Source: Anaeromyces robustus | Lineage: Eukaryota; Neocallimastigomycota; Neocallimastigomycetes; Neocallimastigales; Neocallimastigaceae | DNA length: 64,000 nt | Reading direction: 5' to 3' | NCBI GenBank assembly: GCA_002104895.1 | Contig: MCFG01000299.1 | Span: 1 to 64,000, forward strand | Part shown: one piece after another, positions 3,859 to 22,504 of the stretch | Layout: each line of letters opens with the position of its first letter | How positions within the stretch are numbered: position 1 is the stretch's first letter | Notes under the pieces: model-generated | The model's input: the letters and a program-made list of their open reading frames with translations, nothing else | Told to the model about the DNA's origin: nothing | Database searches by the model: none | Made by a program: the position numbers and the translations under genes

Positions 3859-4417
3859 TGTCAATAATATATTAATAAATATAATAAAATTATTTTTTAT
3901 TAATAATAATTAATAATTAAGATTTATTTCAAGCCTTAAACAATAATATATTAATAAATATAATAAAATTAATTTTTATTTAATAATAATTAATAATTAA
4001 AATTTAATTCAAGCCTCAAAAATAGTTTAAGAATAATTTAAATATTTTATCAATTTTATTATTAATAATTAGAATATTTTAGAAATTATTTTATTTCTGT
4101 AAAAATAATAATTATTAATGTATTAATAATATTTTTATGCTTTTAGTAATTAATCATTTTCCATTACTAATAACTCATTTTCTATTAGTAATATTAGTTA
4201 GTTTATTTATATAGTTTAAATTTAGAAAAAAAAATATAAATATGAAGAAAAATCACTTTTACATTTTTTTCTTCATAAAAGAGATTATCGTCTGAATAAT
4301 CCAAATTGAAGATTTAACCATAATCTTTATTAATTAATTTTTTATATCGATAGTTAGAAACAATTTATAAATTTAATTACTATTTAACTTTAATAAATAA
4401 TAATATTCTTAAACTAA

Positions 4418-4514: not shown

Positions 4515-5889
4515 CTCATGTAATAATAATTTTTAATAATTCATGTATAACTTCTGATTGTATGTGCTTAGCATTATTTTCTTTAGTATATATAGGTTTA
4601 TTATTTATTTATTATTATATTATTTATCTCAATTTATTAAAAAATTTTTACTGTGTTTTCTCAGAGTTACACAACAAGAATTTTGATATTATTATCATTT
4701 TATTTTATTGTGCAACCCTTTGTCAATAATATATTAATAAATATAATAAAATTTTTTTTTATTTAATAATAATTAATAATTAAAATTTAATTCAAGCCTC
4801 AAAAATAGTTTAAGAATAATTTAAATATTTTATCAATTTTATTATTAATAATTAGAATATTTTAGAAATTATTTTATTTCTGTAAAAATAATAATTATTA
4901 ATGTATTAATAATATTTTTATGCTTTTAGTAATTAATCATTTTCTATTACTAATAACTCATTTTCTATTAGTAATATTAGTTAGTTTATTTATATAGTTT
5001 AAATTTAGAAAAAAAATATAAATATGAAGAAAAATCACTTTTATATTTTTTCTTCATAAAAGAGATTATCGTCTGAATAATCTAAATTGAAGATTTAACC
5101 ATAATCTTTATTAATTAAATTTTATATCGATAATTAGAAACAATTTATAAATTTAATTACTATTTAATCTTAATAAATAATAATATTCTTAAACTAAATC
5201 TTAAATAAAAAGACAAAATTTATTACAAGCCACATTTAATAACTTTCAGCCTATTTCGTTTGTTTAACCCTTTGATACCCTTTTATGAGTTCACTATAAT
5301 TTATTTTGATTATTTTATCATTAATTTTTGTTGTACTACTCTCAAGATTGTTTCACAAAAATTTTTCTGATTCATACTTATATATATATCTAGTATATAT
5401 ATACTTTGTTTTTCATAAATTTTTTCTATATATATAATTTTATATATATAGTTTTTTTTACTCTATTTTCATCTTTTTCTCTTTTATTTTATTTTTAACG
5501 CATACAATTCCAAATTATTAATAAAATGATCATTAAAATCCTAACCCTAGTTACCTTTCTCAGAGTATCACAATGAAAAATTTTGATATTATTATCATTT
5601 TATTTTATTGTGCAACATTTTCAGTTCTCCATAAAATTTTTGATTATTTTATCATAAATTTTTATTGTACTACTCTTAAGATTGTTTCACAAGAAAAATT
5701 TTTCTGATTCATACTTATATATATATCTTTATTGATATACTTTGTTTTTCATATATTTTTTCTATATATATAGTTTTATATATATAGTTTTTTTTACTCT
5801 ATTTTCATCTTTTTTCTCTTTTACTTTATTAACTCATACAATTCCAAATAATTAATAAATTTATCATTAAAAACTTAACCCTAATTTCT
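4515..5889 (+). repeat. Repeat family R4, two units ending in CCTAACCCTA
   Basis: Two adjacent copies of a roughly 340-bp-plus AT-rich repeat. Unit 1 spans 4515-4720 and 5278-5550, split by a solo LTR. Unit 2 spans 5551-5889. Shared landmarks are TTCTCAGAGT, a stretch ending TATTGTGCAAC, GATTGTTTCACAAG, ACTCTATTTTCATC and a terminal CCTAACCCTA or TTAACCCTAA. A third copy is at 12779-13236. No coding capacity is seen. The terminal hexamer looks telomere-like but is present only once per unit. Confidence 0.75.
4721..5277 (+). mobile_element. Solo LTR of the E1 family
   Basis: TGTCAATAAT...TTTGATA, 557 bp, inserted in R4 unit 1. The five bases on each side are CCCTT (4716-4720 and 5278-5282), a typical integrase target duplication. 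The uninterrupted R4 copy at 12779-13236 reads straight through this point. It most likely arose by LTR-LTR recombination of a full element. Confidence 0.88.
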
Positions 5890-15888: not shown

Positions 15889-17316
15889 ATGATGGAAAAT
15901 TTAAATATAGAATTTAGTGAAACCAATAAAGGAAAAGAACAAGTAGTTATAAATAGGAAATATAAATTTAATTTACGGTACATAAAGAAGGATAATTTAA
16001 AAGTATATTATTTTACCGAATATAAAACAGTAAATAAATGTAAATCTTTCATTATTTTAAATAAAAAAAATGAAATAATAGAATATGAAAATTTACATAA
16101 TCATTCAGAGAAAGAATTTGATGTATCAATTTCATTAGTAAAACATAATATTAAAGATGATATTAGAAAAAGTTCAATCCCTTTTGAAATAAATCCAAAG
16201 CGTATTTTTGACGAAATATCAGAAGAAATAGGTTTTATATGTCCTGAATATAATACAGTTAGATCCCAAACAACAAGATATATAAATAAAAAATTACCTT
16301 ATAATATAATAACAAATTTTGATGAAATCCCGGATGAATCTGAATAATATAAAACAAAAATTTATGATATTCAAAAATTCTAATATCTTAATTTTTTAAT
16401 CATCATTTCAAGCAGAAATATTTATTAAATACAATGAAAATGATGGAACTTTTTATATCGCATCAATATTTAGTAATTAAGCGTTTATAACAAGAGCATA
16501 TGTTCCAGAAGTAAATAGTTTTTACACTACATCATTTTCGATATTAAATAATAAAAAACAAACGACATATGAAACATTATTTGAAGAAATAAATAAATAT
16601 TTGAAAAAATATAAAAATAATATTATTATTACTCCAAAGTATTTCCATTGTGATTTTGAAAAAGCAATATCTAATGCAATTAAGAAAACCTTTCCTAATT
16701 TAAACATTAGATATTGTGTATGGCATTATAAAAGATCATTAAAATTAATAAAAATAAATTATGTTATAAAGAAATAGAAGATAATAAATATATATACATG
16801 TATTATAAAGCTATTTTAAACTTTCCATTTATAAATCCGGATTATATATTTGATATATACAATAAAATTAAAAGGGAATGTCAAAAAAACAATTATAATC
16901 AATTCTTAGATTTTTTAGAATATTTTAATGATACTTATTTACAGAGACATGATATAAAATATTGGAATTATTATAATGGTATAGAGCATATAACAAATAA
17001 TGCTTCAGAATCATTTAGTAAATATTTAAAATTATTATTTCAAAATAAACCAACTTTTTATAAATTAATTCATAAATTAAAAAAAGAAGAATCATTATCT
17101 TTTAATGATTACCAAAGAAGAAATGAAGGAATTTTGAGTAAAAAAAGAAAAATAGTTAGAAGAACTGATCAAATAAATATATTAATTGGAATGTACAAAG
17201 AAGCAGAGTCTAATTTAATTAATAATAATGAATGTAATAGAAATGAAATCATTGAATTATGGTTTGAATGCTTAAATATTTTAAATTCAAATTTCATTAA
17301 TCTTATATCAATATAA
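15889..17316 (+). pseudogene. MULE B transposase, broken
   Basis: Related to copy A along its whole length. A 152-codon FLYWCH/N-terminal frame (15889-16347; FTEYKTVNKCKSF and LHNHSEKEFD) ends at a stop. The central region 16348-16797 carries the DGTFYIAS and CDFEKAISNAI core but has stops and frame changes. A 172-codon C-terminal frame (16798-17316) holds EHITNNASESFSKYL with the catalytic E. A 587-bp part (16145-16731) has been copied in inverse to 21526-22112, stops included, so the decay predates that copy. Confidence 0.85.
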
Positions 17317-18688: not shown

Positions 18689-18929
18689 TATCAAAAGGTT
18701 AAACAAACGAAATAGGCTGAAAGTTATTAAATGTGGCTTGTAATAAATTTTGTCTTTTTTTATTTAAAATTTAGTTTAAGAATATTATTATTTATTAAAG
18801 TTAAATAGTAATTAAATTTATAAATGTTTCTAACTATTGATATAAAAAATTAATAAAGATTATGGTTAAATCTTCAATTTGGATTATTCAGACGATAATC
18901 TCTTTTATGAAGAAAAATAAATAAATACA

Positions 18930-19922
18930 TTACACAATAGAGGCCTTTCTTAAACCACGGAATGAACAAACAATATCTGCTTCGACATTAAAAGACATTC
19001 TAGGAATTAATTGTTCGTTATTAATACTAATTGGATCATTGTAAATACCGACTAATAATGTTGGTTTAAATGGTACTTCTGGGGTTTCAACTATAAATGC
19101 AGGATTTTTAGTTATAGCTTTAGATTCAATCAATTCTAATGGATATTGAGGAACAGTAACAATATCTGAACCATCAGAAACTGTAGCTCCATTACCATTA
19201 ACTGCTCTAGGATTTGGAATACCATAATATCTATCAGTTAATGGGTCAAAAGAACCATACCATGAATCAAGATCTGCTGTATTCACATAATATCCTTTTT
19301 CTGCTATAGTAGATGGATATATACTTCTAGTTATAGTAGTGTTACTATTAGGATTAACTGATCTATAAGTACCTGCTGTTGGACCATCAATAGTAACATA
19401 TAACCCATCTGAATTATCATTAGATCCAATAAGAGTAGCTCTACCACTAGTTGCAGTATTTCTGACATAAATTTGTTCCTCAGATAAACCAGTACGATCC
19501 CAAGCAGTAACAACTGTATAACCATTATAATATTGACCAATACCAACAGTATTTGTATAAATGGGATAATGATATGGAGTTAATTTTACTGTCACTTTTT
19601 CAATTTTAACTTGATCATACATATTAGAATAACTTTGGTAAAATTCTGATTTACGTAACAAATCCCATATATTTAATGCAAATACACCAGTTTCAAATGT
19701 TGTTGGTGCAACATTTTCTCCGTTATTTAATGTTATCAACCCATTAAAAACCTCGAATCTAGATGGAACAGATATATTTATTTCTGCTTTGTCTCTTTGT
19801 TGTCTAGCAGCTGTTTGATTTCTTGAAGTACGACGTTGAGATCTTGAATAATATCCGTAACGTCTGCTATAAGTTCGGTAAGGGTAACGTCTTCTATATC
19901 TTCTATAGTATCTTGCGGGCAT
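18930..19922 (-). CDS. cap: CRESS-virus capsid protein
   Basis: A 330-residue frame. The N-terminus is strongly arginine/tyrosine-rich (MPARYYRRYRRRYPYRTYSR), the typical DNA-binding and nuclear-targeting arm of circovirus-type capsids. About 290 residues with alternating beta-like segments follow, as expected of a single jelly-roll fold (PSRFEVFNGLITLNNGENV, DQVKIEKVTVKLTPYHYP, ADIVCSFRGLRKASIV). It is transcribed away from rep across the origin region. The stop lies about 11 bp from the join to host LTR DNA. Assignment rests on the basic arm, length and rep neighbour; sequence family was not searched. Treated as part of a virus fossil. Confidence 0.85.
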   Translation of the reverse strand: MPARYYRRYRRRYPYRTYSRRYGYYSRSQRRTSRNQTAARQQRDKAEINISVPSRFEVFNGLITLNNGENVAPTTFETGVFALNIWDLLRKSEFYQSYSNMYDQVKIEKVTVKLTPYHYPIYTNTVGIGQYYNGYTVVTAWDRTGLSEEQIYVRNTATSGRATLIGSNDNSDGLYVTIDGPTAGTYRSVNPNSNTTITRSIYPSTIAEKGYYVNTADLDSWYGSFDPLTDRYYGIPNPRAVNGNGATVSDGSDIVTVPQYPLELIESKAITKNPAFIVETPEVPFKPTLLVGIYNDPISINNEQLIPRMSFNVEADIVCSFRGLRKASIV

Positions 19923-20617
19923 GTCATAACTTATTATTATTAATTAACTTTTATATAATTATATAAAATATTTTAAAAAAATATTTATTTAACAAGAAAA
20001 TTTCAATGCCTTTTACTTCTTTATATACTTTTTCGAAAATTACTATTTTAGGAATTTAATTTATATACTATACAATTACAATATATTACAATACATTGTA
20101 TTTCAATTAAAATATATTACAAATTATTTTATCACATATATTACAATACTTTTCAATACATTACTACTAATTCAATGAATGAATGCTAACTTTTTAAATA
20201 AATCTTTATTTTAATATAAGTGTATGTTGTAGCAAAACAAATAAATTAATTATTACTCTATATAGAAATGGGGTGCTAAAAAATTTAATAGGGTCCTTTT
20301 AATTAATTAAAGAGGATGCCGTAGCACACCAAAATAATTTCATAAATGAAATAAACTTTATTTAATAATAAAGTTGTGATATGGGGTTCCCGTAATACTA
20401 AGTTTGGGAACCCCATATATTATATCGTAATATTATTGGTCGATGAATACAATCAATTTAAATTTTTCGTCTCAAAAGGCAGTGAAAAAATCTCAAATCT
20501 CAAAAACAGTCTCAAAAAAAATCTCAACTTAACCACCAACACTAAAAATATAAATACAAATTATTTTTTCTTAAATTTTAAAATCATTGTACATTAAAAA
20601 TAAATATTATTTACAAA
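19923..20617. other. Intergenic region of the CRESS fossil
   Basis: Holds the 5' sides of cap and rep and the origin stem-loop. Near the stem-loop, GGGTGCTAAA (20271), GTAGCACACC (20321) and TTGTAGCAAAAC (about 20227) share a GTAGCA/TGCTA core. They could be Rep-binding iterons, but they are not regular enough to be sure. Confidence 0.6.
20379..20418 (-). promoter_or_regulatory. CRESS rolling-circle origin stem-loop with nonanucleotide TAGTATTAC
   Basis: A perfect 13-bp stem (ATATGGGGTTCCC / GGGAACCCCATAT) encloses a 14-nt loop. On the minus strand the loop reads AAACTTAGTATTAC and contains TAGTATTAC, a match to the circovirus consensus NANTATTAC where Rep nicks. The nonanucleotide is on the cap-coding strand, the orientation known from cycloviruses; in genus Circovirus it is on the rep strand. 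Confidence 0.92.
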
Positions 20618-21550
20618 ATGAGTCAAACTTACTATTATGCTTTTACTCTTAACAATTACACTCCTTTACAAGAAAAAATCATTCAAGAATTTGCTAAAAC
20701 TTATTGTGCAAGACTTATGTACGGTAGAGAAGAAGCTCCTACCACTGGCACAAAACATTTGCAAGGCTGTTTTCAATTAAATTCAAGAAAAAGACCCGAA
20801 AACGTTAAATCATTATTAGGAATAGATGAAATCCATTTAGAATTTCAAAAAAAGGTATACACAGCTAATGCCAGTTATTGTGAAAAATCAAATGATTGCT
20901 GGTATTTCCCAAACAAACAAGAAAACTTCGATAGACACGGTAGACCTTTAACCAAGAAAGGCGCTAAGTTTCAAGAAGCATTAGATTTAGCCAGACAAGG
21001 CCGTTTTGATGAAATTAGTGCCGAAATGATTATAAAACACGAACCCAGATTAATCAAACAATATATCGAACATTTACCAATGGAAAATATGTTATTAGAT
21101 AATGAAAACGGTAACTTTTTTAAAGATTTCTTTATTTTACTACATGGACCAACTGGTGTTGGAAAATCGTATTCTGTCGGGATGTTTGTTGCTTACTTAA
21201 AAATGTTTTGGAAGGACTACTGCAAGAAGAACAAATTAGCTTATCAAGAATTGGATGTATATTATAAGAAATGCAACAAATGGTGGGACGGCTATAAAGG
21301 ACAAAAAATTGTTGTAATTGAAGAACTTGAACCAAATTGGTTTAGGCTAAGTGGAAATATGTTAAAACAATTATTAGACCAATATCCTTTCCCTGTCGAA
21401 TGTAAAGGTGCTACCATTAATAAAATCCGTCCTTTGTTTATTCTTATGACAAGTAATTATAGCTTAAGGCAATTATGTAGTAAAGAGGATGGATCTACAA
21501 TCGAAGAAAACTTTAAACCATTAAGTTATAATGCCATACACAATATCTAA
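20618..21550 (+). CDS. rep: CRESS-virus replication-associated protein (HUH endonuclease plus SF3 helicase)
   Basis: A 310-residue frame with all hallmark motifs. HUH endonuclease: motif I FTLNNYT (about 9-15), motif II HLQG (47-50), motif III YCEK with the presumed nicking tyrosine (87-90). SF3 helicase: Walker A GPTGVGKS (177-184), Walker B IVVIEE (231-236), motif C ILMTSN (275-280). The protein would nick the stem-loop nonanucleotide and drive rolling-circle replication. It diverges from cap with the origin between them. The virus-derived DNA ends at about 21525 and the frame's stop lies in the adjoining transposon-derived DNA. Base composition (less AT-rich than the flanks) agrees with a foreign origin. 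Treated as part of a virus fossil. Confidence 0.93.
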   Translation: MSQTYYYAFTLNNYTPLQEKIIQEFAKTYCARLMYGREEAPTTGTKHLQGCFQLNSRKRPENVKSLLGIDEIHLEFQKKVYTANASYCEKSNDCWYFPNKQENFDRHGRPLTKKGAKFQEALDLARQGRFDEISAEMIIKHEPRLIKQYIEHLPMENMLLDNENGNFFKDFFILLHGPTGVGKSYSVGMFVAYLKMFWKDYCKKNKLAYQELDVYYKKCNKWWDGYKGQKIVVIEELEPNWFRLSGNMLKQLLDQYPFPVECKGATINKIRPLFILMTSNYSLRQLCSKEDGSTIEENFKPLSYNAIHNI

Positions 21551-22112
21551 TGTTTAAATTAGGAAAGGTTTTCTTAATTGCATTAGATATTGCTTTTTCA
21601 AAATCACAATGGAAATACTTTGGAGTAATAATAATATTATTTTTATATTTTTTCAAATATTTATTTATTTCTTCAAATAATGTTTCATATGTCGTTTGTT
21701 TTTTATTATTTAATATCGAAAATGATGTAGTGTAAAAACTATTTACTTCTGGAACATATGCTCTTGTTATAAACGCTTAATTACTAAATATTGATGCGAT
21801 ATAAAAAGTTCCATCATTTTCATTGTATTTAATAAATATTTCTGCTTGAAATGATGATTAAAAAATTAAGATATTAGAATTTTTGAATATCATAAATTTT
21901 TGTTTTATATTATTCAGATTCATCCGGGATTTCATCAAAATTTGTTATTATATTATAAGGTAATTTTTTATTTATATATCTTGTTGTTTGGGATCTAACT
22001 GTATTATATTCAGGACATATAAAACCTATTTCTTCTGATATTTCGTCAAAAATACGCTTTGGATTTATTTCAAAAGGGATTGAACTTTTTCTAATATCAT
22101 CTTTAATATTAT
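21526..22112 (-). repeat. Filler: inverted copy of MULE B (16145-16731)
   Basis: Read on the minus strand, this segment follows MULE B base by base with no difference seen by eye, including its stop codons. It carries no MULE terminus and no target duplication of its own, so it did not arrive by transposition. It links the CRESS DNA to a short inverted LTR piece. Confidence 0.9.
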
Positions 22113-22153
22113 ATTTTTTCTTCATAAAAGAGATTATCGTCTGAATAATCCAA
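22113..22153 (+). repeat. Short inverted LTR snippet at the insertion junction
   Basis: TTCTTCATAAAAGAGATTAT and the bases that follow are the reverse complement of the LTR sequence at about 18882-18918 on the other side of the insertion. The switch back to the LTR strand occurs across an AAA shared by both strands (about 22152-22154). Confidence 0.85.
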
Positions 22154-22504
22154 AGTGATTTTTCTTCATATTTATATTTTTTTCTAAACTATATAATAAA
22201 CTAACTAATATTACTAATAGAAAATGAGTTATTAGTAATAGAAAATGATTAATTACTAAAAGCATAAAAATATTATTAATACATTAATAATTATTATTTT
22301 TACAGAAATAAAATAATTTCTAAAATATTCTAATTATTAATAATAAAATTGATAAAATATTTAAATTATTCTTAAACTATTTTTGAGGCTTGAATTAAAT
22401 TTTAATTATTAATTATTATTAATAAAAAATAATTTTATTATATTTATTAATATATTATTGACATTATGTTACACTAATTTATTATGTAACACTAATTTTA
22501 TAAT

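What the first reader, a model, noticed from the sequence alone, without database searches (positions are those of the whole stretch)
18919..21525. Near-complete CRESS-DNA virus fossil with cap, origin and rep in an AT-rich eukaryotic genome
Most endogenous CRESS sequences are lone rep fragments. Here rep with every hallmark motif, an arginine-armed capsid gene of full length and an origin stem-loop with a canonical nonanucleotide are kept together in the order of a real genome. Both sides are host transposon DNA, so it is not simply a contaminating contig. It implies that a circovirus-like virus entered this lineage, and it is a young fossil.
Basis: partly seen in the sequence, partly recalled or inferred. 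Interest (0 to 1): 0.88.

Follow-up and report, generated by a model that had tools for sequence, protein, structure and literature searches.

The report
Fossil ssDNA virus in gut fungus
Part of a circular single-stranded DNA virus, with its coat gene, its replication origin and about half of its replication gene, was captured recently into a transposon-rich stretch of an anaerobic gut fungus genome, and other copies in the same genome suggest that the virus carried more genes than its circovirus-like relatives do.

Summary
In detail: cap (18930-19922, minus), an origin hairpin with TAGTATTAC (20379-20418) and rep (from 20618, plus) lie in viral order between host DNA. The integration looks genuine. 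The flanks are two halves of one dispersed host repeat; in 18 of 20 fetched uninterrupted copies they lie only 5-6 nt apart. The right end carries filler copied from host DNA: 592 nt identical to a MULE piece about 5 kb away, plus about 45 nt of the repeat itself. So the capture is recent and went through break repair.

"Near-complete" does not hold. Rep is cut at residue 302, before a conserved basic motif and a C-terminal extension; its 97%-identical relative on contig C625 keeps both (the extension in another frame). The same genome, an anaerobic gut fungus, holds 9 rep copies and 6 cap loci. Several adjoin a fibre-like repeat gene and a 314-aa gene. Overlapping copies suggest an ambisense circle of about 6.5 kb, of which the window holds roughly 40%. 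The rep pair C222/C625 has dN/dS 0.036: they diverged as replicating viruses, so they probably entered separately.

Likely a new lineage of circovirus-like CRESS viruses of gut fungi; its family could not be placed here.

The parts
18818..18917 (+). left host flank: first half of the interrupted dispersed repeat
   Evidence: 100 nt align at 98-99 of 100 to all 20 fetched repeat copies
18918..21525 (.). viral insert (cap 3' end to rep codon 302)
   Evidence: bounded by host repeat at 18917 and by the MULE filler at 21526; similarity to C625 ends at 21525
18930..19922 (-). cap, 330 aa, arginine-rich N terminus, unbroken
   Evidence: Circo_capsid E 1e-4, below cut-off; 6 cap loci in this genome
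20286..20326 (+). 41-nt element left of the origin, 40 of 41 identical in C388; possible cis signal
   Evidence: 1 mismatch in L021, 9 in L022
20379..20418 (-). origin hairpin, 13-bp stem, loop with TAGTATTAC
20470..20516 (+). four TCTCAAA words between origin and rep, iteron-like; role not tested
   Evidence: count of 4; positions read
20618..21525 (+). rep, first 302 residues (HUH and most of the SF3 domain); the ORF runs on to 21550 in filler
21526..22117 (-). templated filler 1: inverted copy of a piece of the MULE gene
   Evidence: 592 nt, 100%
22109..22154 (-). templated filler 2: about 45 nt of the host repeat, inverted, including the nucleotides lost at the break; overlaps filler 1 and the right flank by a few nt of microhomology
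   Evidence: read; a 44-nt inverted pair is listed
22152..22251 (+). right host flank: second half of the interrupted repeat
   Evidence: 99-100 of 100 in 18 of 20 copies; in the other 2 a T run cuts the alignment to 66 of 66
16140..16731 (+). source of filler 1, inside a decayed FLYWCH/MULE transposase gene

Best explanation
A recent, partial endogenous viral element. A circovirus-like CRESS virus of this anaerobic gut fungus left a 2.6-kb fragment (cap 3' end, through the origin, to rep codon 302) in a dispersed host repeat. Shown: the repeat is interrupted with 5-6 nt lost; the right junction carries two inverted templated fillers; rep lacks its conserved basic motif and its extension; the genome holds at least eight other rep copies and five other cap loci; the closest pair of rep copies diverged under strong purifying selection. 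Inferred: a broken viral DNA was joined to one end of a chromosome break, while the other side was extended by template switching (microhomology about ATAA and AAA) from an unbroken copy of the repeat and from the nearby MULE gene before closure. Inferred: the parent virus was an ambisense circle of about 6.5 kb, rep with extension on one side of the origin and cap, fibre-like gene and 314-aa gene on the other. Inferred: the copy in the window is a fossil, since a Rep cut before that motif should not work as a helicase.
For: Empty site: both flanks meet in 18 of 20 copies, repeat found 33 times with up to 2 mismatches, two of these being the insert's own borders. Filler: 592 of 592 identical, second filler contains the nucleotides missing at the break. 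Truncation: the 9 other rep matches all end at or before residue 303, five of them at 303, while C625 A, C388 and C249 continue into an extension. Other genes: fibre and 314-aa ORFs beside cap or rep in C130, C249, C459. Selection: 37 synonymous against 7 nonsynonymous differences between the C222 and C625 rep.
Against: No single copy carries the whole proposed gene order; it is pieced together as a map from different, diverged viruses. C130 locus 1 has both gene groups on one strand and two hairpins, which one ambisense circle does not predict. In the window neither viral end lies at the origin nick, so nothing there shows Rep-driven integration. The cap pair C222/C233 (dN/dS 0.47 over 101 aligned columns) and p314 pairs (0.28, 0.49) show weaker constraint. 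No free virus was found: IMG/VR gave one distant rep (26%).
Confidence: 0.82

Rival explanations
1. Near-complete small genome: a circle of about 2.6 kb with only rep and cap, opened between the two 3' ends and integrated whole.
For: Gene order, single origin and 2.6 kb fit a circovirus-like genome; cap keeps its stop codon.
Against: Rep has no viral stop and ends before the conserved basic motif; the 97%-identical C625 A copy goes on with that motif and a 284-aa extension ORF.
Confidence: 0.1
2. Two-segment virus: one circle with origin, rep and extension, another with origin, cap, fibre and p314; the window would be a recombinant or joined copy.
For: C130 locus 1 has two different hairpins, one before rep and one before cap; C388 and C625 A have rep and extension without cap.
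Against: The window has cap and rep on the two sides of one hairpin; p314 lies next to the rep extension in C459 and in C130 locus 2.
Confidence: 0.15
3. Assembly chimera: viral and host reads wrongly joined at a repeat.
For: The insert lies in a dispersed repeat and beside a 592-nt perfect inverted repeat, both hazards for assembly; no reads were available.
Against: The two flanks are matching halves of one repeat copy with 5-6 nt missing, with ordered fillers between; a separate copy in C625 has a 176-nt direct duplication around it.
Confidence: 0.04
4. Rep and cap kept by the host as working genes (domestication).
For: Open frames; dN/dS 0.036 between two rep copies.
Against: The two copies differ in ends and context, the window rep is cut before a conserved motif, the 94% identity runs on through the noncoding origin side, and other copies are broken.
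Confidence: 0.04

Closest known systems
Circoviridae (Rep of PDB 7lar; that it is porcine circovirus 2 is recalled)
   Same: HUH plus SF3 Rep with PF02407 Viral_Rep; PDB profile match E 5.6e-21; ambisense cap and rep on either side of a hairpin with TAGTATTAC
   Different: Related copies have a Rep of at least 540 aa and further genes; cap matches Circo_capsid only below cut-off
Endogenous CRESS viruses of Entamoeba and Giardia (PMC7493932, passages seen)
   Same: Integrations that hold both rep and cap in a gut eukaryote
   Different: Those are described as whole genomes matching free viruses; here a fragment with repair filler, in a fungus, with no close free relative found. Family membership (Naryaviridae, Nenyaviridae, Vilyaviridae) was not tested
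BdDV-1 of the chytrid Batrachochytrium dendrobatidis (PMC11115238, passages seen; that it is a CRESS virus is recalled)
   Same: Endogenous DNA virus in an early-diverging zoosporic fungus
Gemycircularvirus signal in Pecoramyces and Gigaspora circovirus A (PMC9501391, passages seen; PMC10224137, section 13 and passages)
   Same: ssDNA virus signals in fungi, one of them a gut fungus
   Different: Here the Rep matches PF02407 and only PF00910 besides, with a capsid gene; the Gigaspora virus is described as rep only

Membership tests
Cressdnaviricota (CRESS DNA viruses) | Rep with HUH endonuclease motifs I-III | tested here: met
   FTLN, HLQGCF, YCEK in the window rep; Viral_Rep above cut-off
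Cressdnaviricota (CRESS DNA viruses) | complete SF3 helicase domain (Walker A, Walker B, motif C, and the basic motif, by recall the arginine-finger region) | tested here: not met
   Walker A, B and motif C present, KPL(K)RR stretch cut off in the window copy; present in C625 A and both C388 copies. This bears on the copy being intact, not on its origin
Cressdnaviricota (CRESS DNA viruses) | origin hairpin with nonanucleotide | tested here: met
Cressdnaviricota (CRESS DNA viruses) | circular ssDNA genome | not testable with these tools
   integrated copies only; no free relative found
Circoviridae | single jelly-roll capsid of circovirus type | tested here: inconclusive
   Circo_capsid 23.1 bits, cut-off 36.2; no PDB match for the cap profile; model pLDDT 37.0, unusable
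Circoviridae | small genome (about 2 kb, recalled) with rep and cap only and Rep of about 300 aa | tested here: not met
   the close relatives in this genome have a longer Rep; extra genes at viral loci
Circoviridae | Rep falls in the family clade of a tree | not tested
   protein database switched off; no labelled reference Reps on hand
Naryaviridae, Nenyaviridae, Vilyaviridae | Rep falls in the family clade of a tree | not tested
   same reason

The most novel reading that the evidence does not exclude
Anaerobic gut fungi are hosts of an undescribed CRESS virus family with genomes of about 6.5 kb, Reps of up to about 590 aa and two further genes (a fibre-like repeat protein and a 314-aa protein), which has entered this genome repeatedly and recently.
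Probability: 0.55. Interest if true: 0.75.

Novelty: new variant of a known kind. Interest (0 to 1): 0.62.

Why it matters
DNA viruses of anaerobic gut fungi, important fibre degraders of herbivore guts, are almost unknown: my paper searches turned up one transcriptome signal. This locus indicates that such a fungus was infected by capsid-bearing CRESS viruses, repeatedly and recently, and gives sequence handles (rep, extension, cap, fibre, p314) for finding the living viruses in rumen samples. The clean empty site and the templated filler also make it an unusually readable record of how viral DNA enters a fungal chromosome.

Tried and rejected
Protein-database searches with cap and rep could not be made because the database is switched off. 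Six IMG/VR scans (rep profile, cap, cap profile, C388 rep, the 28-nt form of the 41-nt element, C114 cap) gave one weak rep relative, L029 at 26%, and otherwise nothing. Phage records gave nothing for rep, fibre or p314. PHROGs and NCBIfam gave no relevant family for cap or rep. Single-sequence structure models were too poor to use (pLDDT 37.0 and 39.8), so no fold search was run.

A transposon that carries the virus was considered, because MULE genes lie near viral genes in C222, C625, C388 and C114. Set aside: MULE-like genes are common (222 candidates, 95 scored), and the 44-nt inverted pair around the insert is explained as filler from the interrupted repeat. A special link to the Ty3/gypsy elements beside several copies was set aside likewise: 364 candidates, 79 scored. 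Enrichment was not tested statistically in either case.

The ORFs p320 and p174 beside cap in C114, and p243 divergent from it, are not claimed as viral: p243 has no other copy, p320 has one good further match on C178 and one 21-residue match on C179, p174 was not searched. Pfam matches of fibre and p314 are below cut-off or absent. In one search the query cut from the C249 extension was out of frame; no result rests on it.

Full report
What is there. The window is bases 1-64000 of contig C222 (87 kb) of an assembly of 70.2 Mb in 769 contigs. The genome is AT-rich and full of fungal dockerin modules (PF02013: 150 matches scored of 683 candidates; none in 14 control genomes). I take it for an anaerobic gut fungus, Neocallimastigomycota; the tie between these modules and that group is recalled, and the species is not known to me. 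Around the insert the window is a transposon island: Ty3/gypsy polyproteins and gags and MULE transposases, with no tRNA (bacterial-code ARAGORN) and no Rfam match.

Between 18918 and 21525 lie cap (330 aa, minus), a 695-nt intergenic region and rep (plus). Rep has Viral_Rep (36.0 bits, cut-off 26) and RNA_helicase (41.7 bits, cut-off 21.5); cap matches Circo_capsid weakly (E 1e-4, 23.1 bits against 36.2). A profile of eight rep copies finds the PDB Rep 7lar at 5.6e-21. The origin is a perfect 13-bp hairpin with TAGTATTAC at the 3' side of its loop on the cap strand. Hairpins in C388 and in C130 (two, one with the variant CAGTATTAC) share this design; all four fold better than 200 of 200 shuffles. 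Open frames of 337 and 314 codons compare with a maximum of 165 in 1000 shuffles.

How it got there. A 22-nt word of the flank recurs 33 times in the genome with up to 2 mismatches, 27 exactly; two of the 33 are the borders of this insert. Twenty other copies were fetched and two more lie in the window. The left flank ends, and the right flank resumes, inside this repeat. Left flanks match the 20 copies at 98-99 of 100. In 18 of 20 the right flank matches at 99-100 of 100 and the two lie 5 nt apart (6 in one); in the other two a long T run cuts the right alignment. The two window copies give gaps of 5 and 6. Between rep and the right flank sit 592 nt identical to an inverted piece of the MULE gene at 16140-16731 and about 45 nt of the same repeat, inverted. 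That second filler includes nucleotides that are missing at the break, so it was copied from an unbroken copy (read). Short overlaps (about ATAA and AAA) mark the switches. This is the picture of break repair with template switching. The MULE gene has many stops (22), so it had decayed before it was copied, and the copy has not changed since: the event is recent, but no absolute date is possible.

What is missing. Apart from the window itself, the 9 rep matches in the genome end at or before residue 303 of the window ORF, five of them at 303. The last 8 residues of the window ORF are filler. C625 copy A (44 of 906 nt differ) goes on with RRLY and then a 284-aa ORF in another frame. In C388 rep and extension are one 540-aa frame; C249 keeps part of the extension in frame. 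The extension has 6 matches in the genome, on C625, C130 (two), C388, C249 and C459, all contigs with rep. So the window Rep is about half of the inferred natural protein of about 590 aa.

On the cap side, C130 locus 1 has, after a frame-broken cap (L022 6263-7126), a 480-aa ORF with four NG......YDG repeats, here called fibre-like on that ground alone, and a 314-aa ORF. Fibre matches: 5 of 7 on C130, one each on C249 and C625. 314-aa matches: 4 of 6 on C130, one each on C459 and C364. Only the C364 match is on a contig where I found no rep or cap. In C459 the 314-aa ORF (stop at L020 4006) faces the rep extension (L020 4314-4607). In C130 locus 2 it is followed by a rep-end and extension fragment that is inverted, between 82-nt inverted repeats. 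With cap-origin-rep in the window these overlaps give one ambisense circle: origin, rep with extension, then on the other strand p314, fibre, cap, origin. Adding up the lengths gives about 6.5 kb. The estimate mixes different viruses and no sequence was put together. C130 locus 1, with two hairpins and both gene groups on one strand, speaks for a two-segment rival and is kept as such.

How often. After merging neighbouring matches, the 10 rep matches are 9 copies on 7 contigs and the 7 cap matches are 6 loci on 5 contigs; a 20-residue rep trace in C130 locus 2 comes on top. C625 copy A sits between parts of a Ty3/gypsy-like element (protease and reverse transcriptase, both below Pfam cut-offs), flanked by a 176-nt direct duplication with 2 mismatches. 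Its viral end lies in the origin loop, within about 6 nt of the expected nick, at a TAAG overlap (the nick position is recalled). This is one end among many looked at, so it is a hint of Rep action and no proof. A second viral fragment (a fibre piece, then rep copy B) interrupts the same element. C388 has two different rep genes in tandem.

Pairwise NG86 values for rep: C222/C625 A dS 0.265, dN 0.010, ratio 0.036, with differences at codon positions 4, 3, 37; C459/C625 B 0.13; C130/C388 0.10 and 0.13; C222/C459 0.18, these four with dS above 1 and hence rough; C388 a/b dS saturated, dN 0.085. The rep values mean divergence while functional, hence probably separate entries of related viruses. 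For p314 the ratios are 0.28 and 0.49 and for cap C222/C233 0.47 over 101 aligned columns: weaker constraint, which may include decay after insertion or changing surface residues.

Literature seen. Whole CRESS genomes are reported in Entamoeba and Giardia (PMC7493932, passages). An endogenous DNA virus of a chytrid is cited in PMC11115238 (passages). A survey of early-diverging fungi reports RNA viruses, some from Neocallimastigomycota (PMC7482067, passages). A transcriptome survey names a gemycircularvirus in Pecoramyces (PMC9501391, passages), tabulated in a review (PMC10224137, passages and section 13). I saw no report of this element, or of capsid-bearing CRESS insertions in gut fungi, in the listings. 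Several of these listings were capped well below the number of papers found, and the library lacks most subscription journals.

Verdict. A real, young, partial endogenous CRESS virus; 'near-complete' should be dropped. The wider finding is a repeatedly integrating lineage with a longer Rep and probably extra genes. Its family rank is open.

Noticed in passing
L021 3557-6266 (C388): Two different rep genes in tandem, 79% identical in DNA, the first fused to the extension in one 540-aa frame.
   Followed up: partly
L019 and L018 (C625): Two viral fragments inserted in one Ty3/gypsy-like element, one flanked by a 176-nt direct duplication with its end in the origin loop.
   Followed up: partly
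L022, L023 and C130:81809-84101: Three loci with viral genes within about 54 kb of one contig, sharing flanking repeats; one holds two origin hairpins.
   Followed up: partly
window 20286-20326: A 41-nt element left of the origin differs by 1 nt in C388 although the Reps are about 46% identical; it holds the palindrome-like TTAATTAATTAA and may be a replication or packaging signal.
   Followed up: partly
window 4281-4302, 5062-5083, 18881-18902, 22130-22151: Dispersed host repeat with a small palindrome (GATTAT...ATAATC), 33 matches in the genome; its own nature was not worked out.
   Followed up: partly
L025 2554-6762 (C114): An unbroken cap of 339 aa followed at once by a 320-aa ORF and then a 174-aa ORF, with a 243-aa ORF facing away; these may be other genes of a related virus.
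   Followed up: partly
L029 (IMG/VR contig, 7348 nt): Odd contig with a primase/helicase-like ORF (by eye) beside a CRESS-like rep and two similar long arginine-rich ORFs; possibly chimeric.
   Followed up: no
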